The notes beneath the pieces are model-generated. The model did no database searches. It saw nothing but the letters and a program-made list of their open reading frames with translations, and was not told the origin of the DNA. Made by a program: the position numbers and the translations under genes. From IMG/VR virus record IMGVR_UViG_3300033144_002171, positions 1 to 20,236 of that record: a stretch of 20,236 nucleotides of DNA. One strand, given 5' to 3'. Positions 1-17,743 of this stretch are shown here, piece by piece (positions within the stretch are counted from its first letter, which is position 1; each line of letters starts with the position of its first letter). Source of the DNA: a virus.

Positions 1-538
1 ATCGGCAAGTTCTCCTTGAACTTCATCCCATCTTTTTTGTGCTTCAGGAAATCTTCGTTCCCCGGTGAACATATTGGCTGCCTCATTGTCGGGGTCAAGC
101 AATAAAGGATCTGTTTCTCCCTTAACCCAATCTATGTGTTTATTGTATTTATCTTGGAGAGCTTTTGTTTCGGCATCGATAGGCTCTACCTCCTCCTCAC
201 TCTCTGTATCTAAAGATACCGATTGCGCTGCTGCGTCTGTCTCTTGAACTGTTGTATCCAACGAAGTATCTGTGTCCTCCGTAAGACCAGGAGATTCCGT
301 ATCGGTGTCTTCTTTTTTTTTTTAATTCTGCTCCGAACTCCTCCATCGTCCAATGATCTTTGAACGTGGGGTCTTTTTGCACCATATAATTATATAGATT
401 AGGGATAAACTCGGGATCAGCATCGACAGTAGATACAAAATCCTCATAAGGCAAATCAGCCTCGTAGGTTGGGTCAACCTTTACCATATAATCCCATAGC
501 TCTTTACTATACAAAGGTTGTGTTGCTGTCTCTGCCAT
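1..538 (-). CDS. Internal-virion-type protein, partial, frame broken at an A11 run
   Basis: The gene starts at ATG 538-536, two bases after the TAA of the upstream gene. The first 75 residues read well and carry two imperfect 25-residue copies of a motif (residues 14-38 and 48-72; shared core YMVxxDPT[YF], then an acidic-aromatic E[DE]F). At 313-323 the minus strand has 11 A inside a Lys-codon run. In the starting frame the protein then turns into Arg/His/Tyr/Gly-rich sequence and stops at 197-199. In the neighbouring frame (effective +1, as if there were 10 A) translation stays open for 104 codons to the window edge and gives normal acidic, hydrophilic protein (EDTDTESPGLTEDTDTSLD and onward). 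I therefore treat the two parts as one gene of at least 179 residues, either frameshifted by sequencing or slippage or truly broken, with its 3' end outside the window. Short aromatic repeats of this kind occur near the N-terminus of large internal proteins of marine phages (from memory). The function is unknown. Confidence 0.6.
313..323 (-). other. A11 homopolymer at a reading-frame break
   Basis: There are eleven consecutive T on the plus strand, giving A11 in the mRNA. Before the run the frame is Leu-Lys-Lys-Lys; after it the original frame gives Arg-Arg-His-Arg, while skipping one base gives Lys-Glu-Asp-Thr-Asp. The second choice is open and plausible to the window edge. Runs this long are known sites for polymerase slippage and also for sequencing errors. 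The sequence alone cannot tell these apart. Confidence 0.8.
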
Positions 539-540
539 AC

Positions 541-2628
541 TTATATTTTTTCAAAGTCTACATCTATTTTACTATAGTCTACTGCTAGGTATCCATCCTT
601 TTGTTTAATGGATGCCCACGGTACTTCCTGTGCCATTACCCCTCGGTATCTACCCTCCTTATTAATATATTTAAACTCATAGATATTAATACCATTAGGG
701 GATTGCCCTACTAAATTGATGTCTTCTTTAAGGGCAATATCAGAACGCCTTGGCGGGGTTGCTGCACCACCACCACTTGTTGCACCACCACCACCTGTCC
801 CTCCAGCGGTAGTCGTAGTGGTTTGAGTCTTTTGAGCGTTCTTTCTATATTGTCGCATAGCCGCTTTCATCGTCTCATTATTATGGTCTTGCCAGTCCTC
901 CGCATCTCCATACGTTTCACTTGGAGAATCTACAATAATGGTTCCTACCGTGGTATTATCTATTATAATAGGGATTTCATATATATTTTCTTTACCCGTC
1001 AAATCCCATTGGGAGTACTTATCATTAATCTTGGCTGTGCCTAAACCTAACATAGATTCTTTAAATCCTGGCATCCACGTATTTAGAGTTTCGGTGACAA
1101 TATTTTTTATATCTGTCGTATCACCAGAATCTAATGACACCAATGAATTTACTTTGGATGTCTGTGCTTTGGGAATAGCAGCAGGTTGAGTATAGGTAGG
1201 GGGTTTATGAGATGACCCCGCTTGTGCGGCATCATATCTTGCAGCATCAATCTTTTTAATATTATTATGATATTGAGATAATGCCTTATGGTCTCCATTC
1301 TGAATCTCTTCTCGTACTACTAGGTTGCCTTTCTTATCTTTTTCCCATACTATTATATTTCCATCCGATGTCTCCTCATATTCATAGTTTTTATTAAAGC
1401 GGCTAAAGTTAAAGTTATTAACAGCATCAATAGAATCTTGATATATCGTATTAGACAACTTATCCAGATTCTCCTCCGTGGTTCCCGTACCCGAATCCTT
1501 TTGTGGGGCCGTTTCTTTATACCCAGCTTGAGCATCGATGAGCTTGTCGACATATTCATCGGCACGTTTATCTTGCTCGGCAGATAGTTTAGGTTGGACA
1601 TTACCTAGTTCATCAGTTTCGGTTTCTACCATATACCCCTCTGCCACTTGATCGGCTACAGTGGATGGCATTGTACCTTTAACAAATGTGCCATTGGCAT
1701 CGGTATATCCTCCTGCCGTTTTGGACTCTTCAATAAGCTGATCACGTAGAGAAGTCATCTTCTTCTTATAATCATCACCCGTTTTATCCCCTTTATAGGC
1801 AGTAAATTTCCCATTGTCATTATCGGCTAATACACTAAACTTATTACGTGCATTACCTAGAATGGTATTTTTCATATCGGTCTTAAAGACCGCATAGTCA
1901 TCTCTTTCCTGTTGGGAGGCTACCAATTTATCCCCATCCCATATTTGAAACTCCCCCGCATTCTTAAATTGGTTGCTAATCATACCACTCACATCTACCC
2001 TATCGGCTAATTGGTTTTGGTTGTTATTAATACTATTTAAAGATTTGGTGTCTATTACATTCCCATTGGTATCGTAGGTCTCTAAAGACATTCTTCCCGT
2101 AGTAGGGTCGCTAATTATTTTTTTATTTCGTAAGTCGCTCAAGTCAGCTTTATCGGAACCAAGGAATAGTTCGAATGCTCCTGCCGGGGCTGGTTTGCCA
2201 TCTTTCCCTTGTTGGCGTTTCATCATCTCGGCAAAATTCTCATTATAGTTTTTAGCCTCTCTAGCAAAATTAGACCAATCCTGCTTGGCGTTCTGTAACA
2301 TTTTTGTGGCATCGCTAGGATTAAGCTTAATGCGTTTCCCTGGGTTAGATGGGTCATCATAGCCCCCATCTTGGACTGCCTTGGCTAACCACTTCTGAAA
2401 ATTACGTTGACCATCAGCTCCCTCAATAACAAATTGATTAAAACCTTTGTTCTGCCCATGAGGAATATCATCTAAATTATCACTCGCATCGGTGAATTGT
2501 TTTTGAATGACTTCCCTTTGGGCCTTACGGGCAAGATCGACTTTAGCTAAATCTCCTGTGATTTTAGTAGCAATCTCTCCCCATCTTACGGGGCCACCCT
2601 CTGCCTTTTTAAAACCTGCGTATTCCAT
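541..2628 (-). CDS. Large internal-virion/tail protein with short S74-like C-terminus
   Basis: This is a hydrophilic protein of 695 residues. Its ATG directly follows the TAG of the preceding gene, so translational coupling is likely. Residues 1-600 have no domain I can name. They are rich in Asp, Asn, Lys and Gln, and the region around 100-145 looks helical. A Thr/Gly-rich linker covers about 601-627 (five Thr, then Gly-rich). From Ser629 to the end (67 residues) it resembles the intramolecular chaperone/Peptidase_S74 motif: SDxxLKEDI, then GINIYEFKY, then GVMAQEV. Ser629 and Lys634 have the +5 spacing of the Ser-Lys dyad of endosialidase-type auto-cleaving chaperones. The domain is shorter than the usual ~100 or more residues. 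Position after the tail genes and next to an Ala-rich protein suggests a virion component carried in the head or tail lumen, though an external fibre role cannot be excluded. The call of virion protein is fairly safe; the exact role is unknown. Confidence 0.6.
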   Translation of the reverse strand: MEYAGFKKAEGGPVRWGEIATKITGDLAKVDLARKAQREVIQKQFTDASDNLDDIPHGQNKGFNQFVIEGADGQRNFQKWLAKAVQDGGYDDPSNPGKRIKLNPSDATKMLQNAKQDWSNFAREAKNYNENFAEMMKRQQGKDGKPAPAGAFELFLGSDKADLSDLRNKKIISDPTTGRMSLETYDTNGNVIDTKSLNSINNNQNQLADRVDVSGMISNQFKNAGEFQIWDGDKLVASQQERDDYAVFKTDMKNTILGNARNKFSVLADNDNGKFTAYKGDKTGDDYKKKMTSLRDQLIEESKTAGGYTDANGTFVKGTMPSTVADQVAEGYMVETETDELGNVQPKLSAEQDKRADEYVDKLIDAQAGYKETAPQKDSGTGTTEENLDKLSNTIYQDSIDAVNNFNFSRFNKNYEYEETSDGNIIVWEKDKKGNLVVREEIQNGDHKALSQYHNNIKKIDAARYDAAQAGSSHKPPTYTQPAAIPKAQTSKVNSLVSLDSGDTTDIKNIVTETLNTWMPGFKESMLGLGTAKINDKYSQWDLTGKENIYEIPIIIDNTTVGTIIVDSPSETYGDAEDWQDHNNETMKAAMRQYRKNAQKTQTTTTTAGGTGGGGATSGGGAATPPRRSDIALKEDINLVGQSPNGINIYEFKYINKEGRYRGVMAQEVPWASIKQKDGYLAVDYSKIDVDFEKI

Positions 2629-3202: not shown

Positions 3203-3610
3203 TTATAAGAATTTAACCATTTGTGTACAATTTTTATCTGTCTCTATAAATTTGCAGTCTTCATATTTTTGAATAAGGGCTTTATTGTTTAAGCTAGTAA
3301 AAATATATTTAGCTCCCTTATCTTTACAAATCTCTGCAATCATATGTAATAAAAAGTATATCGCCTCTCTTCTATCATTTCCTCTATATTTTTTATTAGA
3401 AATAACGAACTCGCACCACGCTACATTTGAATTAGTGAAATACATATATCCTGCACATATATTCACCTCATCTTTAGAGACTAGTACTCCCCCTGTGCCA
3501 TTTTCAGGAAGAAAGTCTTTTGATGGGGCATCCCATTTCCAATCTTTCCACCAACCACACAAAATGTCCTCGTAATCCCCATCTTGTAAGAGTCGTGCCT
3601 TAAAATTCAT
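3203..3610 (-). CDS. GNAT-like N-acetyltransferase
   Basis: This protein has 135 residues and fits the size and layout of a minimal GNAT fold: an N-terminal strand-helix (MNFKARLLQDGDYEDI), a central beta pair around 50-70 (ICAGYMYF, AWCEFVIS), then KKYRGNDRREAIYFLLHMIA, which sits where the acetyl-CoA-binding motif A and its helix belong, then KYIFTSLNNKALIQKYEDCKF, the usual strand plus the helix ending in an 'x-x-[GC]-F' turn. The pyrophosphate-binding [RQ]xxGx[GA] motif is degenerate (RGNDRR), so activity is uncertain. The substrate is unknown. A TATCTTTG box ends 5 bases before the ATG. GNAT proteins are common accessory genes in phages, where most remain unassigned. Here it sits between the detached muzzle module and the internal virion genes. 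Confidence 0.6.
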   Translation of the reverse strand: MNFKARLLQDGDYEDILCGWWKDWKWDAPSKDFLPENGTGGVLVSKDEVNICAGYMYFTNSNVAWCEFVISNKKYRGNDRREAIYFLLHMIAEICKDKGAKYIFTSLNNKALIQKYEDCKFIETDKNCTQMVKFL

Positions 3611-3615
3611 TAAAA

Positions 3616-3623
3616 CAAAGATA
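3616..3623 (-). promoter_or_regulatory. TAnnTTTG box (-7-type) before the GNAT-like gene
   Basis: TATCTTTG lies in the intergenic spacer and ends 5 nt before the ATG at 3610. It matches the Bacteroidetes -7 consensus TAnnTTTG. I see no TTTG about 19 nt upstream, so only half of a canonical promoter is present. If used, transcription would begin at or next to the start codon. Confidence 0.4.
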
Positions 3624-3628
3624 CAAAA

Positions 3629-4393
3629 TTAAGGGTAACTTTTAAACACATCGCTAGTGACAGCGAACATTTCTACTTGGGTGGATTCTTTATTGGTAAG
3701 TAAAACATCTAGGTAATAGCCTCTTACACCATAAGATTCAGCAAGACTATTTTTCATATAAAGCATAAAATCTCCTGGCACGGGAACCGTTCCTACGAGA
3801 CCTAATGGCGGTGGTGCTAACGCAGTAACTGTCACCGTTGTAGTAGTGTGTGAAGTTATTATCCCCACTATAAGTGGGTCTGCTGTAGTGCTATTTCCTA
3901 TAAATAAAATATCTCCATCACTTAATATACTATCAATGGGATCGGCAAACCCTACAGTATAGGGAGGTCCAGGACTTACTAAAATGGCTGGGCCAATTCC
4001 TTGTGCCGACATTAAGTCTACATTAAATTCATTTTCATACCTCCGAATATAAGAATACCACGCTCCCTCTTTAAGGAGGTAATAGCTAGGGTCAATATAA
4101 CCTGTGCCTAAATCAGTCTGCATATCTGCCTCCCATGTAGTGTTCCCCTCAATCTCAATAGTTTTAAACATCTTGGCTTGAATGGGGTTCTCGTTAAATA
4201 TAGTCTGAATAGTAGAGTTATATTGAACACCATAGAAGTTATTACGTATAGGATTTACATTGTGTTTATATAGGTCTCCATCTTTAAAAGTAAAAAGATA
4301 GGTATTAAGCCTTACCATCCAATCGGGGTAATAAGAAAAGAATGATGTCCATCCTTTGGCTCTCGGAGAATAGGTTAGGGTATATTGTGCCAT
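3629..4393 (-). CDS. Detached C-terminal module of the muzzle/stabilisation tail protein
   Basis: This protein has 254 residues. The N-terminal 100 residues carry a motif series that I remember as the C-terminal part of the giant 'stabilisation/muzzle' proteins of crAss-like and marine podoviruses: LTYSPRAKGWTSFFSYYPDW, then NTYLFTFKDGDLYKHN, then RNNFYGVQY, then an Asn-Glu-x-Pro followed by KMFKTIEIEGNTTW. The middle (about 125-205) is a Pro/Gly/Thr-rich beta segment. The C-terminus (KNSLAESYGVRGYYLD ... VTSDVFKSYP) also resembles the usual end of those proteins. In this window the giant protein at 6474-13061 lacks this module. I infer that the gene encodes a separately made piece of the tail muzzle. 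It follows the glycosyltransferase-like gene with essentially no spacer; a TAACTTTG box overlaps the end of that gene. Confidence 0.6.
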   Translation of the reverse strand: MAQYTLTYSPRAKGWTSFFSYYPDWMVRLNTYLFTFKDGDLYKHNVNPIRNNFYGVQYNSTIQTIFNENPIQAKMFKTIEIEGNTTWEADMQTDLGTGYIDPSYYLLKEGAWYSYIRRYENEFNVDLMSAQGIGPAILVSPGPPYTVGFADPIDSILSDGDILFIGNSTTADPLIVGIITSHTTTTVTVTALAPPPLGLVGTVPVPGDFMLYMKNSLAESYGVRGYYLDVLLTNKESTQVEMFAVTSDVFKSYP

Positions 4394-4394
4394 A

Positions 4395-5324
4395 TCACAA
4401 AGTTAACGATTTTTCTAGACAAGTTTTATTCCCCGTCTTTTTTACCCAATCATAATAATAAATGGAACATCTCCCCGGATCAATATCCACCTCATCATCG
4501 TAAGGCAACTTATCCATATAAATACCTTTATAAAACATCCTATGACCGGGGCCAACCACTCCAGCATTATGATAAAAATTTACGGTCTTCCATTTAGATA
4601 TAGGACAGGTTGCCCACGCAAAATCAAAAGCTTTAGGTACTCGAACTTGTTCGCCCCTCTTCCACGCATTCCATAGCTCTGCCCACATACTAGCACACCA
4701 TATCTGTATCGCATATGGATCACCATCTTTTTTGTTATTTTTTAAACTCCCTAATCCATTATATAAGGCATTAGAGTCGCTTTCTACATCTAACCAATAT
4801 TGAGCATCTACATTTTTTATTAACTTCTGCGCTCCTCCAGAGTTCATTTGATTGTCTTCAACGAGCTTGGGGTCGATATTGACAAGCTCACACATCTTTA
4901 GAAAGACCTCTTCTCCTTTCGTTTTGATATACTCTGCACCAATATAAGATATGGTATCAGAAAAATACCACACATCATCGTTAAGGTAAGGACGAAAATC
5001 AAAGGGACGAGTAAAGATAAAATCGCAATCGTGATAGAAAATGCTTTCTTTAGAAAGGTGGGGAAATGAATAAAAATGTTTAGCAAGGATATGGGCTTGG
5101 ATGGATGGGATATATCTTCTGTCATTACGATCATCTTTATAAAAATAAAAATTTGCTGGATAAGTATCTTGTAATATTCTCCACCTAGTAGGAATGGTAT
5201 CTTCAATACTGCATACTACCATTATCTGTGTAGGATTAATACCACAAGCAATAAAGTTGGTTAGATATACTTCTACCTGCCACGCATAATAATCACTTGC
5301 AGGTTGAGCAGATAAATAGAGCAT
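4395..5324 (-). CDS. Glycosyltransferase-like protein (GT-A type, DxD motif)
   Basis: This protein has 309 residues. The N-terminus (LYLSAQPASDYYAWQVEVYL, then IMVVCSIED at 34-42) looks like the first Rossmann-type strand and helix of a GT-A fold. Residues 95-107 read IFYHDCDFIFTRP: a DxD motif (Asp99-Cys-Asp101) flanked by hydrophobic residues, as expected for metal and nucleotide-sugar binding. Later conserved-looking elements are NSGGAQ (161-166), ASMWAELW around 211-218 with a Trp/Glu pair in the acceptor region, and FYHNAG (250-255) with a late His that could be a metal ligand. The D-x-D-x-I-F-x-R-P pattern and the GGAQ element recall the plant hydroxyproline/serine O-glycosyltransferase group, but this is from memory. 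The gene abuts the fibre gene (TAG then ATG) and ends in TGA. The likely role is to modify a phage tail protein or a host surface glycan. The family is fairly well supported; the substrate is unknown. Confidence 0.55.
   Translation of the reverse strand: MLYLSAQPASDYYAWQVEVYLTNFIACGINPTQIMVVCSIEDTIPTRWRILQDTYPANFYFYKDDRNDRRYIPSIQAHILAKHFYSFPHLSKESIFYHDCDFIFTRPFDFRPYLNDDVWYFSDTISYIGAEYIKTKGEEVFLKMCELVNIDPKLVEDNQMNSGGAQKLIKNVDAQYWLDVESDSNALYNGLGSLKNNKKDGDPYAIQIWCASMWAELWNAWKRGEQVRVPKAFDFAWATCPISKWKTVNFYHNAGVVGPGHRMFYKGIYMDKLPYDDEVDIDPGRCSIYYYDWVKKTGNKTCLEKSLTL
4398..4405 (-). promoter_or_regulatory. TAnnTTTG box before the detached muzzle module
   Basis: TAACTTTG ends 4 nt before the ATG at 4393 and lies in the last codons of the glycosyltransferase-like gene (Leu-Thr-Leu-stop). 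It matches the Bacteroidetes -7 consensus. There is no TTTG at -33 spacing. Because it is coding for the upstream gene, chance occurrence is more likely than for the intergenic copies. Confidence 0.3.
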
Positions 5325-6455
5325 CTAGATTCCTGTTGAGGCTACCCACCAAAATCCTGCTCCATCGCTTACAAATTGTACGGTATCATATTGGGTATTC
5401 AGAACTCTCGTAGCAGCCCCATCAATAGTGTTTCCCCCGGCATCGGCTATTGTTACCGTACCAACCACACCTAACTTTACCCATATGCTATACCCTTGGG
5501 TAGTAATGTCTGCGGCCACTAATAATATATTAAGACCACTTACGGTGATTAGGTTAAAACTATTCTTACCGACTGTGGCATTTACACCTACGGTTTGATA
5601 TGCCATTACAGGGATGCCCGGACCTACGGCAGGAGTTGCCCAACTGCCTACACCTACAGCATCACTCGTTAATACTTTTCCTGTTCCCGGTACGCCTCCT
5701 GTTATTTTTATCTGTCCATTCAGTTCTAGTTGTTCCGTAGGGGCATCGGTATTTATACCTACGTAACCCCGTGTAGCCCCTATCCCTTGAATGTGCATAT
5801 CGGAATTGGCTAATGTGTTGACATCACCACCAGCATAAAATCTAATATTGTCGGTGGTTCCTCCAGCTTGGGAAATAATATTTAAGGCATTGGCATCGGA
5901 GTCGCTATAAATAAAGGAATCTCCTGGGTTACCAAAGCCCGTATTTACGGCATCATTAGTTCCTCTCACTCCTATACTCATAGCTTTAGCCGTAGCATTA
6001 TCATCGGCTGCAACTAAAGCCGTATTGTTAGTGTCAGGCCCAACAATCTTCAATTGATTCTTATTAGGAGGACTACTAGTGGATACTGTTCCAAATGTTC
6101 CTACTACCTCAAGGGTTTCTGTAGGAGTAGCAGTACCTATGCCTACTCTATTTGTACCTGATTCAACAAATAAGGTGTCCGTATCAACTACGAGATTGCT
6201 CCCTATAGAAAAGGTGGGCAAATTAGTAAAGGATATATCAAACCCTCCACCATTTACGATACGTGTTCCTGTTAAGGTTCCATCGATATCGTATATGCTA
6301 TTATCGGTTAAAGGTAAATCAGCAGTTAAACTCGCTAATAAGTTGGTATAAGATAGTGATCTCGAATCAAATGTCACCCCATTCCACTCTGACACATCCA
6401 TCAGGTCATTGGGAGACAATAAAGTCATTGATGCATATTGGCTAATTTTTGTCAT
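5325..6455 (-). CDS. Tail fibre-like protein with VGIGT..P repeats
   Basis: This protein has 376 residues. Residues 1-45 (KISQYASMTLLSPNDLMDVS and onward) resemble the N-terminal virion-attachment segment of fibre proteins in related phages. The shaft has two copies of a hallmark of trimeric phage fibres: NRVGIGTATPTETLEVVG at 102-119 and YVGINTDAPTEQLELNG at 231-247, the second followed by Gly-rich sequence including GKVLTSDAVGVGSW. The C-terminal 100 residues form a compact Val/Gly/Ala/Thr-rich beta tip ending in GFWWVASTGI. No S74 chaperone is attached; one occurs instead on the 695-residue protein downstream. The gene follows the giant tail gene with a TAACTTTG box in between and abuts the glycosyltransferase-like gene. 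The likely role is host recognition on the outside of the tail. Confidence 0.7.
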   Translation of the reverse strand: MTKISQYASMTLLSPNDLMDVSEWNGVTFDSRSLSYTNLLASLTADLPLTDNSIYDIDGTLTGTRIVNGGGFDISFTNLPTFSIGSNLVVDTDTLFVESGTNRVGIGTATPTETLEVVGTFGTVSTSSPPNKNQLKIVGPDTNNTALVAADDNATAKAMSIGVRGTNDAVNTGFGNPGDSFIYSDSDANALNIISQAGGTTDNIRFYAGGDVNTLANSDMHIQGIGATRGYVGINTDAPTEQLELNGQIKITGGVPGTGKVLTSDAVGVGSWATPAVGPGIPVMAYQTVGVNATVGKNSFNLITVSGLNILLVAADITTQGYSIWVKLGVVGTVTIADAGGNTIDGAATRVLNTQYDTVQFVSDGAGFWWVASTGI

Positions 6456-6459
6456 AATA

Positions 6460-6467
6460 CAAAGTTA
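6460..6467 (-). promoter_or_regulatory. TAnnTTTG box before the fibre gene
   Basis: TAACTTTG lies in the short spacer between the giant tail gene and the fibre gene and ends 4 nt before the ATG. It matches the Bacteroidetes -7 consensus. The region upstream is A/T-rich but has no TTTG at the expected -33 distance. Confidence 0.4.
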
Positions 6468-6473
6468 AGATTT

Positions 6474-9400
6474 TTATTCTAATGTTTTATCCACGCCATC
6501 TTCCATTGTTTTGGTAAGACCAGCTTGGGTTGTTTTAGTCATATCTAAATCGGGACATTCATATATATCTCCCGTCCATTGAGTCCCATCCCACTCAAAC
6601 GCAAGTTGCGTATCTACTTTTCTATACCAGCCCGGAGTAGCTAACACTAAACTAGGAACAATGCTATCATATAAATAATTTCCTGCTAGTCCCCAATCGC
6701 CCGTTTCATAAAAGGTATTATAGGATGTAGAATCACACGCATTTTCATTTATTACTCCATAGGCTGCAATAACTGCCGTATAAACGGGAGGAGCCGTAGT
6801 GGTGGTAGTGCTAGTACTAGTTGTAGTAGTCGTGGTAGTCGTTGTTGTGGTAGTCGTTGTTGTGGTGTTACTACAATTATGAACTCCTAATACTTGCCCT
6901 GTAACTCCAATTTCTATAGAAGTGTCTTCACCTTGGACATCATACCATTTTCCTAATCCATTAAAGACTGGAGAGGCGATTGTTGGCCCCGTATACACAA
7001 AATCTCCTACTTCGGGTATATCGGTATTTCCATTATGCCAAAATCCCGTATAAGCTCCTACATATTCACAAGCCTCCCATTGGTTCGAATATCCTGTATT
7101 AGATAAGTCGATATCATCTAATGGAGGGGTAGTAGTTGTTGTTGTTGTTGTGGTAGTTGTTGTGGTAGTTCCCGTACATAAAACACACGATGCATAAATA
7201 ACTACAGGATTAATCATAGTATAATAAGGGAATATCCCTGCTGGTATAACCCCCACTAATAACCAACAGCTACCATCAGTAGTTTTTACTATATCTCCGG
7301 GGTTTGTGGCTCCACTACACGAGGCATCAAATAAGGTAGCCGTAAACCCTGTGCTACATAAAATAGCCTCCCAATAACACCCTACAGGCAATGTGCTTGT
7401 GGTTGTTGAGGTCGTAGTTGAAGTTGTAGTTGTAGTAGGATCTGCACAATTATGAATGTTAACTACTATACCATTAAAATCAATTTGTATAACCGTATTG
7501 TTATCTAGCTTATACCATAAGTTTTGTCCATTAAAAGTTTGTTGTAAGGCTTGATCCACATATATCACATCATTTAGTTGAGGATATAGTTGAGTAGTTC
7601 CTCCATAATGCACAAAGTAATAAACACTAAAGATATCGGGTGAAGAACAAGCGGTGCCTGCATCTACTTCCCCATCGGGATTAATATTAACGGGTTGGAC
7701 TACGGCGGGTGGGGTTACATTAATAGTAAACATATGGACAATGCTATCGCCAAAACAATTGGTGGCATATAAATAAATCGTCCACGACCCTGCTTGACTA
7801 GGTACTCCAGAGAGTAAACCCGTGGCAGTATCAAAACTGATACCCGGAGGGAACACTTCATCCATACACACAATGGAGCCTCCAACAAAAGACACACTTC
7901 CCGTAGTAAGTAAAGGTTGTGAAGAGTCAAAACACATCTGTTCACTACTATTCGCCATTACGGGATAAGTGGTATAAGTCTGTGTTAAACAATCTACACC
8001 CTCAATGGTTCCCCCACTTGCATTACCTTGTATATCATATATTCTACAATTGCTTTGAATAGTAAACGAAGTAGGGTTTCCTGTAGCTACCCCAATTACT
8101 ATATTAATAAGATCGCCAACACTCATAGTTAAGTCTCCTTGAGAAATAACGGGAGGTAAAATTTCATTACACGTACAATTACCAACTGCGATAACATACC
8201 CATTAATATCTACTAGTATCCATTCTTGATTTGGCCCCGGTGTAATAGTAGTGGCATGATAAGCATTGCCCCCATTATAAGGATTAAGACCTGTGGAGTC
8301 CGTATATACTCTATCTCCTACAATAGGCGTAGCTCCCGTCCCATCGTGATAATATGTAACATCACACGCATATTCGCATACTTCAACAATACTTGCGTTA
8401 TAAGTATTAATGCAGAATGGAGTTAGAGTAGGGCAAAACGCACTTACTGTCCACCCACTACTAGCTAAAGGATTATAGATAGTAAGTTCAGCCTCTTCAG
8501 GTATTTGAAGTGTTTTCATAAAGGTACGAGTGCCATTGCCATTATCAGTTAATCCATCATATGGTGGCCCCACTAAATTTATTTCACTTGCTGGTATACC
8601 CTCGGCTATTAGGGCATTGTAGTTAGCCAATGTATTAAGACCAATATATCCCGTATCTATTTGTATGGTATTATTCCACGTTACCACATACCTCGTAGGA
8701 GTGGTCATAGAATTAAATGTTATTCCTACGGGGCCGATATTACTTCCAAAATTTAATATCATATGGTGGGTAGTTGCCTCCCCTCCTGCCCACGAGGCAG
8801 CCTCACCACATAATAGTTGGTCTCTATAATCCCAAATTAAATATAAGTATTGTTCATTATTAGGTCTTATAAAAGTAAATGTGCCATCATAAATATTAGG
8901 AGCCGTAAAAATGGCTGCTAGTGGAGTAGATAACGATAATATCGTTAAGGTGTCTATAGCACTATAATAGGTGTTGGTAACTAAATATCTCAACCTATTA
9001 TTAGCATTAGGATTAAATGGTTTCTTGGTTCCACCATCCGTATAGGCTGTCATCGTAATAGTGTCTCCTGGGACAGGAATAGGGTATTGCCCAGGGAAAT
9101 TCTGAACAGGGTCAAATAAAGATAAACCCGTTATGAGTGATGGCGGTACACCGGGAACTAAACTTTGTGCCAACAAAGGAGTATCGATGTGAGTCCACGG
9201 AGGAAGAACATTGCTCGTATACGTATACACTTGAGTAGCTGTTAGCCCAGCATCATCGGGATTGTTTACTACCATAGCTATGCGAGTCAATTCTGCTCCT
9301 GATGCTTGATATAAATTAACTATCAGAGTCAAGGCTTCATCACCTTGTCCACATCCTCGTATTTCAAATGTCAAGCTCCTATCAGAACCTGTTGCGTTAG

Positions 9401-12400
9401 CATCTATATTGATTATAATATCTTGATTATCATTTCCTGATGCAGGATACCCATTTATCCACCCTATACCATATCCATCATCGGTGACATATAAATCCCA
9501 ACTAGTATTAGATGTAATGGTAAATGCTAAAAAATTAGGGTGGGCATTATTGTCTACGCCAATATAATTTCGGCTCACTTCTAGAATACAAGGTTTGGCA
9601 TCTCTATCCGAAGAAGATAACACATATCTCTCGTGATACGGATCCATACACCCTATCTTTAAAGTCTTTTGATCGGTGGTAAAAAGGTCTTTAAACCAAT
9701 CTCTCAATCCTTGGGATGATATTTCAAACATACCATCTAACCCCAAGCGTAAAGTAACCCCTCTTTTAGCATCAGTAAAGAACATCGTGTTACCCCAATA
9801 AGCAAAGCTTTCGGGGTTTTCACTAATTCCATACTCCCCAGCATAGGTAATCTGTGTGCCTAACACTTGCGGATTAGTCGTAATGCTACCTCCCCCCACG
9901 GCATCACTAATTAAATTTTTTCCATAAAGAATTTTAGAGACCTTATGTTCTTGAAATACCACTAAATCTGTATCTCTAGCGTGGAGCTTTTGGATGCTCC
10001 CAAAAAATATATCTAAATATTTATAATTGGCAGTAGATAGATTAAATTCATTAAGGGAATTAATACCAGATGATTCTCTAAAAACACCGCTATAAGTCAA
10101 ACCCTCTTCTACTCGCTCTTGCCTATAGTCATCAATCACGGTAGATGCACGAGGACTATACTGCATAGTGGTTTCATTAAAGGCATCTTTAATACGATAA
10201 CTTTCTAATCCATTGCCAAATGAAAAGGAATTAAAATTTCCATTGTCATTGGTAGAATCATTTAAGGAAATAGTAAGTCCATTAATAGCGGTTTGAAAAT
10301 TGCCCATTAAATCCCCATGATAATGATTAGGGTCAATGGGATATGTTTCTACCATCTCATAAAATATCTCATTGTCTACTTCTTTTGCTACCGTCTCAAA
10401 AATAGTAGGAGTATCTTGTTGTTGGATAGTAAACTCGACTCTAATAAAATTTCTCTTACACGCATTATTGGTTGTCCCATTATTACCGGGAGACTGCCCT
10501 ACCCCTCCTATTATCATATAGGCGGCATAGTCTTCAGCTTGTGGGGGATCCCACTCAATTTGGTTGTGCCACGACCCTGCACTTTGATTCCATCTCCAAT
10601 TAAATCCGTGACGAAACATTACATTTTTTGAACCTACATCATTGGCTCCATCGTATTGAACAAAACTATTATAAATTTTGTCTTCCCAAAACCACTCTTC
10701 TATATTAATATATCTATCATTAGAGATAAAATTTTGAGTAGCTTGATAATTTCCCATAGCCGTACCATCGCTAGTAAAAGATTCTTTTATCTTAATACTA
10801 ATAATAGCTCCTGCCTCTATGGGTCTATCATAATAAGCTGGATTTCCTGTTCCCCAGCCACTCCCCGGAATGATAGCAAAACCTCCAGCCGTATCTCCTT
10901 GACCTTGAGTAGATCCATAAAAATGTAGGTCTCCTCCAAATGGCCCTATCACTCCATTTCCATAACAATTAATTCTCCACGAATCTCCTGCTTTCATTCC
11001 TTGCGAGGGATCGCTAGTAGGGTTTATCCACTTCATACTAGCTACATGGTTTCCGTTAGGGCCATCTAGTAAAGGATAAGCAGAATAGGGCGTAATGGTC
11101 TGACCTGCGGCTACCGTAGTAAGACCCCCATCTCTATAGACCGAATATTTAAAGGTATGAGTAGTGGAGGGAAATATTAAAGGTTCTATCTCAATGATAA
11201 AACGCATATCTTCAGTTGGCGCACCATAATTGCAATTGCCATTGCAAAAAGGGGTATTATATACCTCGGTTACCAATTTCCCTTGGGCTGATCCTAATGG
11301 CCCTCCATAATAAATGGGTTGACCTGCATATTCTGTTCCTGTATTAGCCCCATATCTCCAATCTATAGTATCCTCATTACAAAGATTTTTATATCTGGTT
11401 GCTGACGATCCTTGTGCCGTTGAAGTATATTGAAAGGTATCGGCTAATAAAAATTGATATGGATAAGGCTTAATCTTCATATATAAGCCAGGTGGTTGAT
11501 AATTTCCGTTATTTAAAAAGTCTTGCCCTTTAACAGATAGCTCTAGGACATTATATTGTTGATTACTATGGGTAACTCCTTGGACATTACTCTTGGCAAT
11601 TACATATCCATCCACCGGGACTTTATCTTTTTCTGGATAGGGCAATAAAAACCATCTATAAATTCCATCTTCAAAAAATGTTATAGGAAATATATTGTAA
11701 TATTCTCCCTTATCTTGCTTTATAAAAAACCTATATGAAGTAGCCCAACATGGGGCTTTGCCACCAGCAGGGAAAAAGACATCTAATGAATTACTATAAT
11801 CGGAAAAATCAGGACTGATATAGGTGGTATTCATTTCAGAGGTTAAGACCGTAGTCATTCTCCCATAATCATCCAAATAGGCTATGCCTATCTCATAATC
11901 TCTATCACTTCTAAAACTCTGTTGTGCATTAGGAAAGGTTCCAATGGTGGGGGTAAAGCTTACTTCATAATTTAAATTTATAGGATTACCATCACATAAA
12001 GTTAAGTCTCTAAATTGCACATAATTGCCATATAATAACCTACTGCCTACAAGCTCTTGAGCTAATGCTTTTAAAGGAACATTATCAAATAATCGAGCTA
12101 ATTGAGTGGGGGTAAGATATGTATAAACTTTATTATTATTAAAGTCAAATTGGGCTGTATTGTTAGTAAGATTATAATTATAAGCCGCATTAGAAATAAG
12201 ATCTTCTCGTTTAAAAGACTCTATTACACTAACATTTATATTACGAGTGTCTCTAAAAAGTAATTGTACCTCTTCAACATTTTTATCTCCACACTCAAAA
12301 GTCAACTTTACTTGATTATATTTATTAACCATAGCAGGATTATTGCCCACTCCATAGTCATAAAAATAGATTAGGGGAGCAAAACATACTGCTGAAAAGG

Positions 12401-13061
12401 GAGACATAGCACTATACTCGTTATCTCGATATTTATATCTATACGAAAAGTAGAGAAACTTCTCTGATAAGTTATTCTGATCGGTTCCATTATTACTTAA
12501 AGCAAGAGTAGGGGAACTCAAAGGTGGTTTCTTAATAACCAAAATATCACTTTCAGTCAGTAAGCCACCCCAATCAGCCCCCAAACTTGTTGTCTGTGAA
12601 ATACAATGATTTATGTTTATACCTCTTGGTTCATTTAAATTATCAGTCCAATAGAGTAGTCCCTCTATAATATTTACCCCGGTGATAACATATCCTTTGT
12701 CAAACCCTAAAATACTTGGGGTAGTGGGGGTTAATTTATTGCATTGTAAAACTATGGTTGTGCTGCCCGTGATTTCACTAAACTCTAATACATAATCCGA
12801 ATTGTCGGAGGCTACGAACCAATATATTTTATTATTAGCCTCATCAGGAATTGCTCCTATAGCTAGGGCATTATCGCCAGGGGTAAAGAAATTACTTTGA
12901 TTTATGTTCCCTTTGGTATTTTCAACGGCTCCTACATCGGAAGATTGGGATGTTCCGATACTCACATTTAATGCTTGGCGATACTGATTTTTAGGTAGGA
13001 GTCTTTCATCCAAATCCTTATTCATTATGCCTGCAATGAAATTCCGTGTTATCTTTACCAT
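6474..13061 (-). CDS. Giant tail muzzle/stabilisation protein with BACON, Ig and Cys-capped repeats
   Basis: This protein has 2195 residues; its ATG directly follows the TAA of the ring/tail-tubular gene. Residues 1 to about 1150 match my memory of the crAss-like 'stabilisation' or muzzle protein that caps the podoviral tail: GIMNKDLDERLLPKNQYRQA near the start, and about 1100-1146 LRLGLDGMFEISSQGLRDWF then GCMDPYHERYVLS. Where relatives continue with a KGWTSFxSY module, this one enters a BACON domain (about 1158-1252: LEVSRNYI, ITSNTSWDLY, IDANATGSDRSLTFEI, ending VNLYQ). Next come beta-rich segments, a Cys-capped repeat (about 1562-1631), a He_PIG-type putative Ig domain (about 1636-1783, with FPPGISFDTATGLLSGVP), and further Cys-capped repeats separated by threonine tracts (about 1876-1891, 1964-1978, 2066-2091). 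The C-terminus is a short charged tail with repeated TKT/DKT. BACON and Ig domains usually bind glycans or hold adhesins, so the last ~1000 residues are probably an exposed display arm. The structural assignment is firm; binding partners are unknown. Confidence 0.75.
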   Translation of the reverse strand: MVKITRNFIAGIMNKDLDERLLPKNQYRQALNVSIGTSQSSDVGAVENTKGNINQSNFFTPGDNALAIGAIPDEANNKIYWFVASDNSDYVLEFSEITGSTTIVLQCNKLTPTTPSILGFDKGYVITGVNIIEGLLYWTDNLNEPRGININHCISQTTSLGADWGGLLTESDILVIKKPPLSSPTLALSNNGTDQNNLSEKFLYFSYRYKYRDNEYSAMSPFSAVCFAPLIYFYDYGVGNNPAMVNKYNQVKLTFECGDKNVEEVQLLFRDTRNINVSVIESFKREDLISNAAYNYNLTNNTAQFDFNNNKVYTYLTPTQLARLFDNVPLKALAQELVGSRLLYGNYVQFRDLTLCDGNPINLNYEVSFTPTIGTFPNAQQSFRSDRDYEIGIAYLDDYGRMTTVLTSEMNTTYISPDFSDYSNSLDVFFPAGGKAPCWATSYRFFIKQDKGEYYNIFPITFFEDGIYRWFLLPYPEKDKVPVDGYVIAKSNVQGVTHSNQQYNVLELSVKGQDFLNNGNYQPPGLYMKIKPYPYQFLLADTFQYTSTAQGSSATRYKNLCNEDTIDWRYGANTGTEYAGQPIYYGGPLGSAQGKLVTEVYNTPFCNGNCNYGAPTEDMRFIIEIEPLIFPSTTHTFKYSVYRDGGLTTVAAGQTITPYSAYPLLDGPNGNHVASMKWINPTSDPSQGMKAGDSWRINCYGNGVIGPFGGDLHFYGSTQGQGDTAGGFAIIPGSGWGTGNPAYYDRPIEAGAIISIKIKESFTSDGTAMGNYQATQNFISNDRYINIEEWFWEDKIYNSFVQYDGANDVGSKNVMFRHGFNWRWNQSAGSWHNQIEWDPPQAEDYAAYMIIGGVGQSPGNNGTTNNACKRNFIRVEFTIQQQDTPTIFETVAKEVDNEIFYEMVETYPIDPNHYHGDLMGNFQTAINGLTISLNDSTNDNGNFNSFSFGNGLESYRIKDAFNETTMQYSPRASTVIDDYRQERVEEGLTYSGVFRESSGINSLNEFNLSTANYKYLDIFFGSIQKLHARDTDLVVFQEHKVSKILYGKNLISDAVGGGSITTNPQVLGTQITYAGEYGISENPESFAYWGNTMFFTDAKRGVTLRLGLDGMFEISSQGLRDWFKDLFTTDQKTLKIGCMDPYHERYVLSSSDRDAKPCILEVSRNYIGVDNNAHPNFLAFTITSNTSWDLYVTDDGYGIGWINGYPASGNDNQDIIINIDANATGSDRSLTFEIRGCGQGDEALTLIVNLYQASGAELTRIAMVVNNPDDAGLTATQVYTYTSNVLPPWTHIDTPLLAQSLVPGVPPSLITGLSLFDPVQNFPGQYPIPVPGDTITMTAYTDGGTKKPFNPNANNRLRYLVTNTYYSAIDTLTILSLSTPLAAIFTAPNIYDGTFTFIRPNNEQYLYLIWDYRDQLLCGEAASWAGGEATTHHMILNFGSNIGPVGITFNSMTTPTRYVVTWNNTIQIDTGYIGLNTLANYNALIAEGIPASEINLVGPPYDGLTDNGNGTRTFMKTLQIPEEAELTIYNPLASSGWTVSAFCPTLTPFCINTYNASIVEVCEYACDVTYYHDGTGATPIVGDRVYTDSTGLNPYNGGNAYHATTITPGPNQEWILVDINGYVIAVGNCTCNEILPPVISQGDLTMSVGDLINIVIGVATGNPTSFTIQSNCRIYDIQGNASGGTIEGVDCLTQTYTTYPVMANSSEQMCFDSSQPLLTTGSVSFVGGSIVCMDEVFPPGISFDTATGLLSGVPSQAGSWTIYLYATNCFGDSIVHMFTINVTPPAVVQPVNINPDGEVDAGTACSSPDIFSVYYFVHYGGTTQLYPQLNDVIYVDQALQQTFNGQNLWYKLDNNTVIQIDFNGIVVNIHNCADPTTTTTSTTTSTTTSTLPVGCYWEAILCSTGFTATLFDASCSGATNPGDIVKTTDGSCWLLVGVIPAGIFPYYTMINPVVIYASCVLCTGTTTTTTTTTTTTTTPPLDDIDLSNTGYSNQWEACEYVGAYTGFWHNGNTDIPEVGDFVYTGPTIASPVFNGLGKWYDVQGEDTSIEIGVTGQVLGVHNCSNTTTTTTTTTTTTTTTTSTSTTTTTAPPVYTAVIAAYGVINENACDSTSYNTFYETGDWGLAGNYLYDSIVPSLVLATPGWYRKVDTQLAFEWDGTQWTGDIYECPDLDMTKTTQAGLTKTMEDGVDKTLE
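6791..6866 (-). repeat. Threonine-codon tract, about 25 residues
   Basis: This low-complexity stretch encodes near-continuous Thr with a few Ser, just after the last [GH]NC repeat end. The codons are mixed (ACC, ACA, ACG, ACT), with a visible imperfect 15-bp unit repeated on the plus strand around 6838-6867. It is a likely flexible linker and a possible length-variable site. Confidence 0.7.
7127..7172 (-). repeat. Threonine-codon tract, about 14 residues
   Basis: This Thr run (GTTTT... ending TPPLDD) lies between two Cys-rich repeats of the giant tail protein. It is made mainly of ACA and ACC codons and looks like a linker of the same type as the two neighbouring tracts. Confidence 0.65.
7391..7436 (-). 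repeat. Thr/Ser tract, about 16 residues
   Basis: This tract has the pattern TTTTTSTTTSTTTST between the second Cys-capped repeat and the next Cys-rich unit. It is the first of three Thr-rich linkers in the C-terminal arm of the giant tail protein. Confidence 0.65.
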
Positions 13062-13985
13062 TTACTTAATCCATTTGGCTCTTCCCCGTAAATTCTGCAT
13101 TAGTCTACCAGGATGAAGATTACTTAATCTGATTTTTGCATTACGCAGATTTGAAACTTTCTCTTTCTGCGCTCTCCTCACGGTATATTCAGGGATTCCA
13201 ATTTTGTTATTAAGTATGGCCCATTTGATGTAACTATATAAAAACTCCTCCGCTAATTTATTAATGGTAACTGCACTATCATCTCCATTGTAGAGACCAT
13301 CTGATACAAACTCAATTACCACTAATTGATTCTTTACACCCGAACTGAAGTTAATGACTCCTCCAATTTTATCAATTCTAAAGGATGGATTAATATTAGC
13401 TATTTCTGTTTGTAGCCCATAATAAGCTCCTCCAATACCATAACTAAAATACCATACTCCATTTACCTCCCAGCCATATTGTCCATACATAGCCCCCGGA
13501 ATAAGACAAGGGGTTTGAGCCATCCCTGCTAAACGAGCTTTATCTAATTCAGAATTTTCTGGCTCCAATACATCTCCATGAATATCAAATAAAACTTGGC
13601 AGTCATTATCTTGCAAATAGGCTTTAGAGTAATTTATTTTAGTGTTCTCATGAAGAGGATATAAAACACCATTTTTCTCTACGGATATACGCACATAGTT
13701 TACATAATCTGGAGGTAAAATAAATTTAAGATCATCACATACCATTAATTCTAATACCCTAATGCTACGTAAGGCATCGTAATTAATTTCTTGAATACCC
13801 CGTTTTGCGTGGAACAATACATTATAACGATTTAAGTTATTGACGAGCTTGTCATCACCTACATACATCAACATAAAGTTGTTGATTATATCAGCTAAAG
13901 AAACATACTGATAAGACCCCCAATTATTGCTTGTAGGAGGGGTGGTTCCATTGGTATAATATTGATATGCCGTTATATATGCCAT
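13062..13985 (-). CDS. Ring/tail-tubular (neck) structural protein
   Basis: This protein has 307 residues. It starts in a TAATG overlap with the preceding ring gene and stops immediately before the ATG of the giant tail gene, so the three are probably translated as a coupled set. The sequence (SLADIINNFMLMYVGDDKLV at about 30-49, then NVLFHAKRGIQEINYDAL, then LILPPDYVNYV-like text) resembles neck proteins encoded just before the muzzle gene in crAss-like and marine podoviruses, from memory. A P/D-rich middle, a Tyr/Gly-rich patch around 165-190 and a basic C-terminal 45 residues (RRAQKEKVSNLRNAKIRLSN and onward) are visible. By position it should form a ring between head connector and tail nozzle. 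The structural role is well supported; which ring it forms is not. Confidence 0.65.
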   Translation of the reverse strand: MAYITAYQYYTNGTTPPTSNNWGSYQYVSLADIINNFMLMYVGDDKLVNNLNRYNVLFHAKRGIQEINYDALRSIRVLELMVCDDLKFILPPDYVNYVRISVEKNGVLYPLHENTKINYSKAYLQDNDCQVLFDIHGDVLEPENSELDKARLAGMAQTPCLIPGAMYGQYGWEVNGVWYFSYGIGGAYYGLQTEIANINPSFRIDKIGGVINFSSGVKNQLVVIEFVSDGLYNGDDSAVTINKLAEEFLYSYIKWAILNNKIGIPEYTVRRAQKEKVSNLRNAKIRLSNLHPGRLMQNLRGRAKWIK

Positions 13986-14701
13986 TAGCTTTCCTCTTGA
14001 TTTTCAACTAATTCCTCTTGAGTAGCAAATTGAACTACGTCTGCCTCTCGTATGTTAACCCCCGCTTGTTGTAATATTTTAAATACTAATGTAGTTTGAT
14101 CCGAATATGGCATCTCAAAGTCTTGATAATCTGCCGCAGCGATATTAAAAATAGGTGACCCTCCTACTACGTTATATGTCCATTTAGGATCGAGGGGATA
14201 CCTAACATATTTAATAATAATGTCGGGGTTTGTTATTGTAACTGGATAGACCGTTATAGAATTACCGGGGGCCGTAGCCGTAGCTCCATCCATTGTATAT
14301 GCTGGATAAGAGGTGTTGGGAGCGGTTAAATTTGCTTGTAGTAGTTCAGTTATTTTATTATGATGCACCCTCTCTACAACTTTGGTTTTTAGATAAATAA
14401 CTTCATTAACATAATACCAATTGGATGGTAATGTAAATACGTTTAAGACTGCTCCTAATGGAGTTGAAGTAAGAGAAAAAGTATCTATAACCTCTTCTAA
14501 TTGTTTAGGAATATCAGTATAACCTGTATTAGATTTCCGTGCATTCTGTTTGTTTGTCCATGCATTGAAGTCATAAAAGTATTCTTCAAAGATTTCTAAT
14601 TGGGCTTGTCTCGAAAATAGGTTAAACTCTTCGGGAGTCATATAGCCATTATTATCTTTATTCATAATCGCTAATACAGTATTTCTAACTTCGTTAATCA
14701 T
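13985..14701 (-). CDS. Ring protein / head-tail connector-like structural protein
   Basis: This protein has 238 residues. The N-terminus (MINEVRNTVLAIMNKDNNGY, then TPEEFNLFSRQAQLEIFEEYFYDF) is a helical start typical of ring/adaptor proteins in crAss-like phages, as I recall them. It is followed by QNARKSNTGYTDIPKQLEEV and a beta-rich middle with WYYVNEVIYLK and KYVRYPLDPKW, then a helical C-terminus (YSDQTTLVFKILQQAGVNI) and an acidic tail. The start is supported by AAAGGA, the only good Shine-Dalgarno-like site seen in the window, 7 nt upstream of ATG. A terminator-like hairpin and a TATCTTTG box precede it, so this gene probably opens a new transcription unit for the neck and tail. Its last base pairs overlap the next gene (TAATG). 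Confidence 0.6.
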   Translation of the reverse strand: MINEVRNTVLAIMNKDNNGYMTPEEFNLFSRQAQLEIFEEYFYDFNAWTNKQNARKSNTGYTDIPKQLEEVIDTFSLTSTPLGAVLNVFTLPSNWYYVNEVIYLKTKVVERVHHNKITELLQANLTAPNTSYPAYTMDGATATAPGNSITVYPVTITNPDIIIKYVRYPLDPKWTYNVVGGSPIFNIAAADYQDFEMPYSDQTTLVFKILQQAGVNIREADVVQFATQEELVENQEES

Positions 14702-14714: not shown

Positions 14715-14717
14715 ACA

Positions 14718-14725
14718 CAAAGATA
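14718..14725 (-). promoter_or_regulatory. TAnnTTTG box before the ring-protein gene
   Basis: TATCTTTG ends 16 nt before the ATG at 14701 and follows the hairpin after the 100-residue gene. It matches the Bacteroidetes -7 element. A TTTTG lies upstream but 23 nt away, longer than the usual ~19. Confidence 0.45.
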
Positions 14726-16285: not shown

Positions 16286-17743
16286 TTATACTCCACCAGC
16301 ATTCTGGAATAAGAAGAAGTTGTTTGCTCCAAGAGTACAAAGACATCTTTCAGAAAGAAAACTAACATTCATTTCATCAATGGTGCTAGTCTGCGCTCCT
16401 CCTGCAGAACCTGTAATCCAAGATTTATATCTTCTGTCTTCAGTTTCAGATGCTCTATATCGAACGTGTAGGAAAGGTCTTTTAGCATTTTTACCAAGAA
16501 TTTGGTCGTAAACGCTAGTAGAACCCGCAGGGACTAATACCCCGTTGATAGCTCCTCCATCGATATCACCTCTTAAAGTCGCATCGTTAAGATACTTCCA
16601 ATCGGTTTTGTAGAACTCATAGCCTCTTTTAAAGCCGTGGAAACCAAGATTTAATGCCATATCCTCATCATTGTCGAAAAGACCATATGAAGTACCACCC
16701 GTACCATAAGAGTTTTGGGCTGCTAACATATCATCGATATCAAAACCGAATTGACGATTAACGAAAATAACATTTTCTTGAATGGCTCCCTGCTTATCAA
16801 GTCGTTGGATGATAGCATCGAAGTCGGCTAATGAAGTTGGGTTACCTCCTCCAAATACGTTACCTCTTGCTCCAATAGCATCGAATAAGCCTTGAGTACC
16901 AGCACTCTGTGGTAATGTAGATCCAGCTGGATACGCTGATGCAACCAAGAACGCTGCTGCTCCTGATGCCGTAGCTGCTGGAACACCCTCAATCATTGAC
17001 ATCTCAAGATAGTCATCGAATCTCAACCTAGTATCATGTTCAGATTTCAAATACCATAGATATCCCGTAGCTCCATTTTCAGAGGATATTTCTACCCATC
17101 CAATCTGTGCCATATCGGAACCTGCTACCGTATAGTTTTCTTTGATGATGATCGGTTTGTTGTCGAAGAACACATCTTCAGAATCAAGAGAGTCTAACAT
17201 TCCTTGTGATCCTTTTCTGAATTCTGAACCATAAACAAATACGGTCATTGTTCCAGCATTGAATCCTGCGGACTGTGCAGCCTCATAATAAGCTACTTCA
17301 AAAGCATCGGGAGTACCCGCTGCTGTGCCTGCTCCTACTGCCGTAACTATTGCTTTGTTGGAAGTGGTTCCTCCCTCTAAAGAAATAAAGATGGTTTGAC
17401 CCACTCTAAAGTTACAAGCAACTGCACCTGCTGTAATGTAAGGTACGTTAGTTGCTGCAGTAGCACCATCTGCCCCGGTTGTAGTACAACCCGTGTATTT
17501 GGTATGTAATCTGCCTTGTTCTGCCCATTTTACTAAATCCGAATTAGTTGGAAGTTCTGCTCCCACCATTCTTAAAAAAGCCGCTATTGTCCTATTTCCA
17601 TATCTCTCAAATTCTTTCTCATAGGTATCTGGAAGATACTGATTCAAGAAGTTGAAATTAGTTATATAGTTAGTCGGCAAAGTCGTTTTCTGTGCGGACG
17701 GGGTTAATGCATAACCCGGTATCGCTTGTACACCTGCTGCCAT
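16286..17743 (-). CDS. Major capsid protein (HK97-fold type)
   Basis: This protein has 485 residues. The N-terminus MAAGVQAIPGYALTPSAQKT is followed by a helical stretch NFLNQYLPDTYEKEFERYGN and TIAAFLRMVGAELPTNSDLV-KWAEQGRLH, which I recognise from major capsid proteins of crAss-like and marine Bacteroidetes podoviruses. Residues about 80-175 are a Gly/Ala/Thr-rich beta insertion (GQTIFISLEGGTTSNKAIVT), probably a surface domain. The middle (about 200-360) has the longer alternating helices and strands expected for the P and A domains, including DDYLEMSMIEGVPAA and IIQRLDKQGAIQENVIFVN. It follows the scaffold-like gene after an A-rich 31-nt spacer that lacks a Shine-Dalgarno site and ends in AAAATATC before ATG. 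The G/C hairpin just downstream fits strong separate expression. This is the most confident functional call along with the portal. Confidence 0.8.
   Translation of the reverse strand: MAAGVQAIPGYALTPSAQKTTLPTNYITNFNFLNQYLPDTYEKEFERYGNRTIAAFLRMVGAELPTNSDLVKWAEQGRLHTKYTGCTTTGADGATAATNVPYITAGAVACNFRVGQTIFISLEGGTTSNKAIVTAVGAGTAAGTPDAFEVAYYEAAQSAGFNAGTMTVFVYGSEFRKGSQGMLDSLDSEDVFFDNKPIIIKENYTVAGSDMAQIGWVEISSENGATGYLWYLKSEHDTRLRFDDYLEMSMIEGVPAATASGAAAFLVASAYPAGSTLPQSAGTQGLFDAIGARGNVFGGGNPTSLADFDAIIQRLDKQGAIQENVIFVNRQFGFDIDDMLAAQNSYGTGGTSYGLFDNDEDMALNLGFHGFKRGYEFYKTDWKYLNDATLRGDIDGGAINGVLVPAGSTSVYDQILGKNAKRPFLHVRYRASETEDRRYKSWITGSAGGAQTSTIDEMNVSFLSERCLCTLGANNFFLFQNAGGV

What the first reader, a model, noticed from the sequence alone, without database searches (positions are those of the whole stretch)
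3629..13061. Muzzle protein appears split: its usual C-terminal module is encoded as a separate gene
In related phages, as I recall, the stabilisation/muzzle protein runs from the NKDLDERLxP start through GxxDPYHxxYVL directly into a KGWTSFxSY ... LYKHN ... RNNFYGxQY ... VFKSYP module. Here the giant protein reaches DPYHERYVLS at about residue 1146 and then turns into a BACON domain, while the missing module is a separate 254-residue protein (3629-4393) three genes downstream. This suggests that the tail cap is rebuilt from two polypeptides, with a display arm taking the place of the old C-terminus.
Basis: partly seen in the sequence, partly recalled or inferred. Interest (0 to 1): 0.7.

Follow-up and report, generated by a model that had tools for sequence, protein, structure and literature searches.

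The report
Phage tail muzzle in two chains
The protein that caps the tail of this crAss-like phage is made as two separate chains, cut in the middle of a single propeller blade, and this layout turns out to be normal in a large, mostly environmental group of relatives rather than a quirk of this genome.

Summary
P0001 (6474-13061, 2195 aa) is a crAss_MUZ muzzle protein whose homology stops at DPYHERYVLS (residues 1140-1149). It lacks crAss_MUZ_C. That module is the separate 254-aa gene 3629-4393. AlphaFold models of the two tile PhiCrAss001 gp44: P0001 1-1150 on gp44 2-1197 (Z 19.9), P0002 on 1181-1371 (Z 9.1). The cut falls at a tight hairpin inside a propeller blade, so each chain supplies two strands of that blade.

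It is not peculiar to this genome. Of 202 distinct loci, 188 are split and 14 fused across this hairpin. In four of the fused proteins an insert of about 136-154 aa sits in the same hairpin. In split loci the upstream chain runs on from the hairpin; 156/188 extensions share one ~170-aa domain and 28 begin with BACON. In phage phi18:3 both chains are annotated as virion proteins from MS/MS. A second clade (78/78 loci) cuts the muzzle elsewhere, at the IG2/crass-domain junction.

Co-assembly was not shown: no two-chain prediction was possible and coevolution was uninformative. New variant of a known kind.

The parts
9612..13061 (-). Muzzle chain 1 core (P0001 residues 1-1150): beta-propeller start, Ig-like and crass-domain region, late blades
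   Evidence: PF25731 38.4 bits; AF2 pLDDT 81; VIA-align 1..1150 onto 7qol_P 2..1197, Z 19.9
9615..9644 (-). DPYHERYVLS (residues 1140-1149), last homologous strand of chain 1; break point
   Evidence: core homology ends here in the sampled split relatives; gp44 equivalent is hairpin VYFTYK-DH-CLCYSE starting at residue 1193
9315..9611 (-). BACON-like domain (residues 1151-1249), first domain of the extension
   Evidence: PF19190/PF13004 E 0.004 in the window, 5e-8 in relatives; custom profile 1.5e-37 (window was in the seed)
8814..9332 (-). Conserved ~170-aa domain (residues 1244-1416) found in 156 of 188 split extensions; possible stalk
   Evidence: profile search; (phrog_14478 1283-1365)
6477..8813 (-). 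Variable arm (residues 1417-2195): He_PIG Ig-like domain (~1734-1783), poly-Thr linkers, phrog_21885-like repeats
   Evidence: He_PIG 33.8 bits, cutoff 24; phrog_21885
5325..6455 (-). P0003, 376-aa ORF between the two muzzle genes; unknown
   Evidence: found in 3 of 211 loci; 59% identical in L008
4395..5324 (-). P0004, 309-aa ORF between the two muzzle genes; phrog_4417, unknown function
   Evidence: 14 of 211 loci
3629..4393 (-). Muzzle chain 2 (P0002, 254 aa): two strands of the cut blade, the following blade strands, MUZ_C domain and an extra small beta-barrel (~126-218)
   Evidence: PF25729 63.8 bits; hhalign 3-90 onto gp44 1199-1285, E 9e-9; AF2 pLDDT 85.6; VIA-align onto 7qol_P 1181..1371, Z 9.1
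3203..3610 (-). P0005, 135-aa ORF directly after chain 2, conserved neighbour (acetyltransferase by a relative's annotation)
   Evidence: 139 of 211 loci, usually within 25 bp of MUZ_C; relative annotated 'N-terminal acetyltransferase complex subunit'

Best explanation
The muzzle (tail-tip nozzle and gate) of this phage is built from two polypeptides. Chain 1 (P0001) carries nearly the whole muzzle up to the second strand of a late propeller blade, then leaves the propeller as a long C-terminal extension: BACON-like domain, conserved ~170-aa domain, variable Ig-like/Thr-rich arm. Chain 2 (P0002) starts with the next strand of the same blade, completes that blade and the next, and carries the MUZ_C domain. 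In the virion chain 2 would add its strands to chain 1's blade, so the blade is shared between chains, presumably six of each per tip as in hexameric gp44. Cutting the chain gives the propeller a free C-terminus at a surface hairpin, from which host-facing domains can be added without having to return to the propeller. Shown: homology, position of the cut, tiling of predicted folds, conservation, virion presence of both chains in a relative (by record annotation). Inferred: strand pairing, copy number, outward display, carbohydrate binding.
For: Pfam MUZ on P0001 and MUZ_C on P0002. Both in one ORF in phi38:1, elemo and Gundel, with a single annotated feature across the site in nearly all listed gut Crassvirales. 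Models tile 7qol_P: 2-1197 and 1181-1371 (Foldseek E 2.9e-25 and 1.4e-3, with the gp44 chains on top in both). P0002 residues 1-30 are low-confidence alone while most of the rest is confident, as expected of strands that need a partner. 188 split, 14 fused; chain-2 homology starts a median of 2 aa after its start codon. Four fused proteins carry 136-154 aa in the same hairpin, so it tolerates large insertions. phi18:3 gp114 and gp115 are both annotated from MS/MS of virions.
Against: No two-chain prediction could be run. Coevolution across the cut was uninformative: hairpin columns are nearly invariant and phylogenetic noise dominates. The MS/MS evidence is a note in the phi18:3 record; the paper was not available. 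BACON is below Pfam's cutoff in the window itself. Nothing tests glycan binding or which face the arm leaves from.
Confidence: 0.88

Rival explanations
1. Artefact: a frameshift, misassembly, decayed gene or recoded stop has cut an ordinary one-piece muzzle gene in this contig.
For: Panino shows a muzzle broken elsewhere that could be such an error; crAss-like phages use introns and recoded stops (PMC7886860).
Against: Same cut in 188 distinct loci with intact chain-2 ORFs and in cultured isolates; two intact genes lie between; gap is out of frame; TAA, TAG and TGA all end genes in the window; no Rfam intron match.
Confidence: 0.02
2. Chain 1's own extension folds back to complete the propeller, and P0002 is a separate adaptor that keeps the MUZ_C fold but sits elsewhere.
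For: 156 of 188 extensions share a domain right after the first ~100 aa; no joint structure was obtained.
Against: Some extensions are only a ~100-aa domain; MUZ_C profile finds nothing significant in any extension; P0002 keeps the propeller strands YTLTYS and GWTSF, which a free adaptor would not need.
Confidence: 0.07
3. The two ORFs are joined at the protein or RNA level (readthrough, splicing or trans-splicing) into one chain.
For: In 31 of 72 close pairs the gap is in frame.
Against: 41 of 72 close pairs are out of frame, as is the window (2080 bp, two genes between); TAA is the usual stop (172 of 188); no intron family match.
Confidence: 0.03

Closest known systems
PhiCrAss001 gp44 muzzle (PDB 7QOK, 7QOL; PMC10172136)
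   Same: Same fold over the whole length; P0001 1-1150 and P0002 tile it
   Different: gp44 is one chain with a tight turn where this phage has a chain end, a 1046-aa extension and a new chain; P0002 has an extra small beta-barrel
phi46:3, phi13:2, phi18:3, phi19:3 structural protein pairs (Pachyviridae; e.g. phi18:3 gp114/gp115)
   Same: Same cut, same two proteins, both in the virion by MS/MS annotation in phi18:3
   Different: Genes adjacent (3-bp gap), ~501-aa extension with a Big_9/cadherin-like domain rather than a BACON domain and Thr-rich arm; nothing found that describes them as a split muzzle
Cellulophaga phage phi38:1 gp097 (Pervagoviridae)
   Same: 36% identical core and 35% identical MUZ_C
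   Different: Fused, short hairpin, no extension
phage T7 nozzle gp12
   Same: Propeller-based nozzle; P0001 core matches 8e4g_P, Z 10.9
   Different: No crass domain (PMC10172136); score no better than many unrelated propellers in the same list

Membership tests
crAss_MUZ muzzle protein (PF25731) | Score above the curated cutoff | tested here: met
   P0001 38.4 bits vs cutoff 27
crAss_MUZ muzzle protein (PF25731) | Overall fold of solved gp44 | tested here: met
   AF2 model 1-1150 on 7qol_P 2-1197, Z 19.9, 653 residues, rmsd 6.4
crAss_MUZ_C (PF25729) | Score above the curated cutoff | tested here: met
   P0002 63.8 bits vs cutoff 27
one-piece crassvirus muzzle | MUZ and MUZ_C in one polypeptide | tested here: not met
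   Separate ORFs 2080 bp apart, out of frame
crassvirus muzzle | Hexamer at the tail tip with a gate loop | not testable with these tools
   Needs a virion structure
BACON domain (PF13004/PF19190) | Score above the curated cutoff | tested here: inconclusive
   Window 17.4-17.5 bits vs cutoff 25; aligned relatives reach E 5e-8
order Crassvirales | Placement of hallmark genes within the order | not tested
   No terminase, MCP or portal tree was built; the nearest named relatives seen (Pachyviridae, Elemovirus) are not listed under Crassvirales

The most novel reading that the evidence does not exclude
The crassvirus muzzle is a general platform for chain breaking: at least two lineages have cut it at different insertion loops (inside a propeller blade here, at the IG2/crass junction in a second clade), each time leaving an open-ended display tail on the upstream chain; and the separate downstream chain may also act as a releasable part of the propeller that loosens the gate when the arms bind the host.
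Probability: 0.12. Interest if true: 0.8.

Novelty: new variant of a known kind. Interest (0 to 1): 0.55.

Why it matters
The muzzle is the gate through which crAss-like phages eject DNA and proteins, and its solved form is a single chain. Finding that most sampled environmental relatives build it from two chains, with the cut inside a propeller blade, changes how these genes should be annotated (the small gene is labelled only 'structural protein') and gives natural matched sets (fused, fused with insert, split) for asking how a tail tip gains new host-facing domains without losing its seal.

Tried and rejected
Mean-field DCA across the cut on 181 split pairs (effective ~80): top between-chain scores looked like phylogenetic noise and the hairpin columns hardly vary, so not used. 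Distance-matrix correlation core vs MUZ_C 0.76, core vs shared stalk domain 0.79: argues against free swapping of the stalk but does not test contact. Sequence search of the PDB with P0001, P0002 or A1 found no muzzle chain; fold comparison did. Readthrough and intron ideas rejected. Literature searches found no description of a split muzzle; the library is open-licence papers only, so this is weak.

Full report
What is in the window. The window (a 20,236-base virus record) reads on the minus strand as the structural module of a crAss-like podovirus: 18954-20219 (a partial ORF in the portal position), 17775-18935, 16286-17743 (phrog_13704 structural protein), 13985-14701 and 13062-13985 (structural proteins), the giant P0001 (6474-13061), P0003, P0004, P0002 (3629-4393), P0005 and further genes. 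Portal is assigned by synteny with annotated relatives, not by a search.

The observation. P0001 matches Pfam crAss_MUZ (PF25731) and not crAss_MUZ_C; P0002 matches crAss_MUZ_C (PF25729), and its first ~35 residues match the last 35 positions of PF25731, below the cutoff. PHROGs agree: P0002 matches a 241-position standalone family (phrog_18548) and also the muzzle families. DPYHERYVLS lies at residues 1140-1149, followed by a BACON-like domain that is sub-threshold in the window but clear in relatives.

Where the cut falls. By profile alignment P0002 3-90 equals gp44 1199-1285; the site in gp44 is the hairpin VYFTYK-DH-CLCYSE beginning at 1193. The AF2 model of P0001 1-1150 ends with strands 1136-1140 and 1145-1149; P0002 begins with strands 7-9 and 14-16, then 33-37 and 40-44. 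Read as a propeller, the first two are strands A and B of a late blade and the next two C and D of the same blade. B-C loops conventionally lie on the same face as D-A loops (general knowledge of propellers); [quoted passage not shown] This last step is inference.

Fold test. VIA-align places P0001 1..1150 on 7qol_P 2..1197 (Z 19.9) and P0002 3..251 on 1181..1371 (Z 9.1); both stand at the head of their lists, as do the gp44 chains in Foldseek. P0002's first 30 residues have pLDDT near 50 while most of the rest is confident, as expected if they fold only against chain 1.

How common. In 211 distinct loci (IMG/VR plus GenBank), 188 have core and MUZ_C in separate ORFs, 14 have them fused across this hairpin (Panino, L005, counts as fused here but is broken further upstream), and 9 lack the core end. 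In the fused set the loop is 5-17 aa except for four proteins with 136-154 aa inserted exactly there. In split loci the extension is 10-1503 aa (median 362); 156 of 188 carry the ~170-aa domain, nearly always starting about 80-120 residues in, and 28 start with BACON within 4 residues of the cut. Others carry thrombospondin-type acidic repeats, a Big_9/cadherin-like domain, or Thr-rich linkers. MUZ_C may sit directly next to the core gene or up to several kb away. The sample was chosen by similarity to MUZ_C queries, so these fractions are not population frequencies.

Evolution. On a 121-row FastTree of core plus MUZ_C, fused and split need at least 8 changes, 5 of them forced by well-supported branches; the window lies in an all-split group of 91 rows. 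The stalk domain tracks the core (distance correlation 0.79), which fits one early split with several re-fusions, but the root was not inferred, some branches are long, and repeated splitting is not excluded. In the gut Crassvirales hits listed, a single annotated feature spans the site in almost all records.

Virion evidence. That places both chains in virions, not yet in contact.

A second cut. Bacterial-genome contigs led to a further clade in which the muzzle is cut at the IG2/crass junction: 78 of 78 distinct loci have chain 1 (mostly 1050-1850 aa) and a chain 2 of mostly 450-550 aa that begins near M-A-x-x-I-E-V-x-Y-F-N-S-F and holds the late blades plus MUZ_C. It aligns to P0001 924-1151 (E 3e-29). 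Two cut sites, each with a variable tail on the upstream chain, suggest a general pattern rather than one accident. The exact gp44 position of this second cut was not mapped.

Verdict. What is new here is that the cut lies inside a blade, that it is the common state among the sampled relatives, and that another clade cuts the same protein elsewhere. Direct proof that the two chains share a blade, and any test of the arm's function, is still missing.

Noticed in passing
L326-L408 (e.g. L326:3330-8420 and 8451-9821): A second class of split muzzle, cut at the IG2/crass-domain junction, in 78 of 78 distinct loci; chain 2 carries late blades plus MUZ_C.
   Followed up: partly
L005:10001-13914 (Maribacter phage Panino): Muzzle broken at a third place (core profile 943/982) with a 110-bp gap; could be a true split, an intron-like element or a sequencing error.
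   Followed up: partly
L141, L144, L158, L170: Fused muzzles with 136-154 aa inserted exactly at the hairpin where others are cut.
   Followed up: partly
window 4397-4405, 6459-6467, 3615-3631, 14717-14725 (minus strand): TAnnTTTG, like the Bacteroidota -7 box, sits just upstream of P0002, P0003, P0005 and P0007; it occurs before 15% of MUZ_C genes against 2% of control stretches. The motif count in the window alone is barely above chance.
   Followed up: partly
window 3203-3610: Small gene next to MUZ_C in 139 of 211 loci; annotated as an acetyltransferase in one relative, not among MS/MS-detected proteins in phi18:3.
   Followed up: no
window 3629-4393, P0002 residues ~126-218: Extra small beta-barrel that appears to be missing from gp44, resembling barrels of phage tail-tip proteins and ATP synthase N-terminal domains.
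   Followed up: no
L012-L019: Muzzle extensions of 1285-1434 aa made largely of acidic DTDGDGxGDNADTDDDNDGV repeats, like calcium-binding thrombospondin type 3 repeats.
   Followed up: no
L320-L324: Muzzle loci on large scaffolds of Aquimarina, Wenyingzhuangia, Flavobacterium and Tenacibaculum genomes, possibly prophages; both fused and split forms occur.
   Followed up: no
L313, L315, L318, L325, L326: Muzzle-bearing contigs binned into gammaproteobacterial, planctomycete, archaeal and actinobacterial MAGs, probably mis-binned phage contigs.
   Followed up: no
L005:22634-22842: Permuted tmRNA gene in the Maribacter phage Panino record, next to tRNA genes.
   Followed up: no
window 541-2628: 695-aa structural protein ending in a Peptidase_S74 intramolecular chaperone domain, 22.9 bits against cutoff 22.
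   Followed up: no
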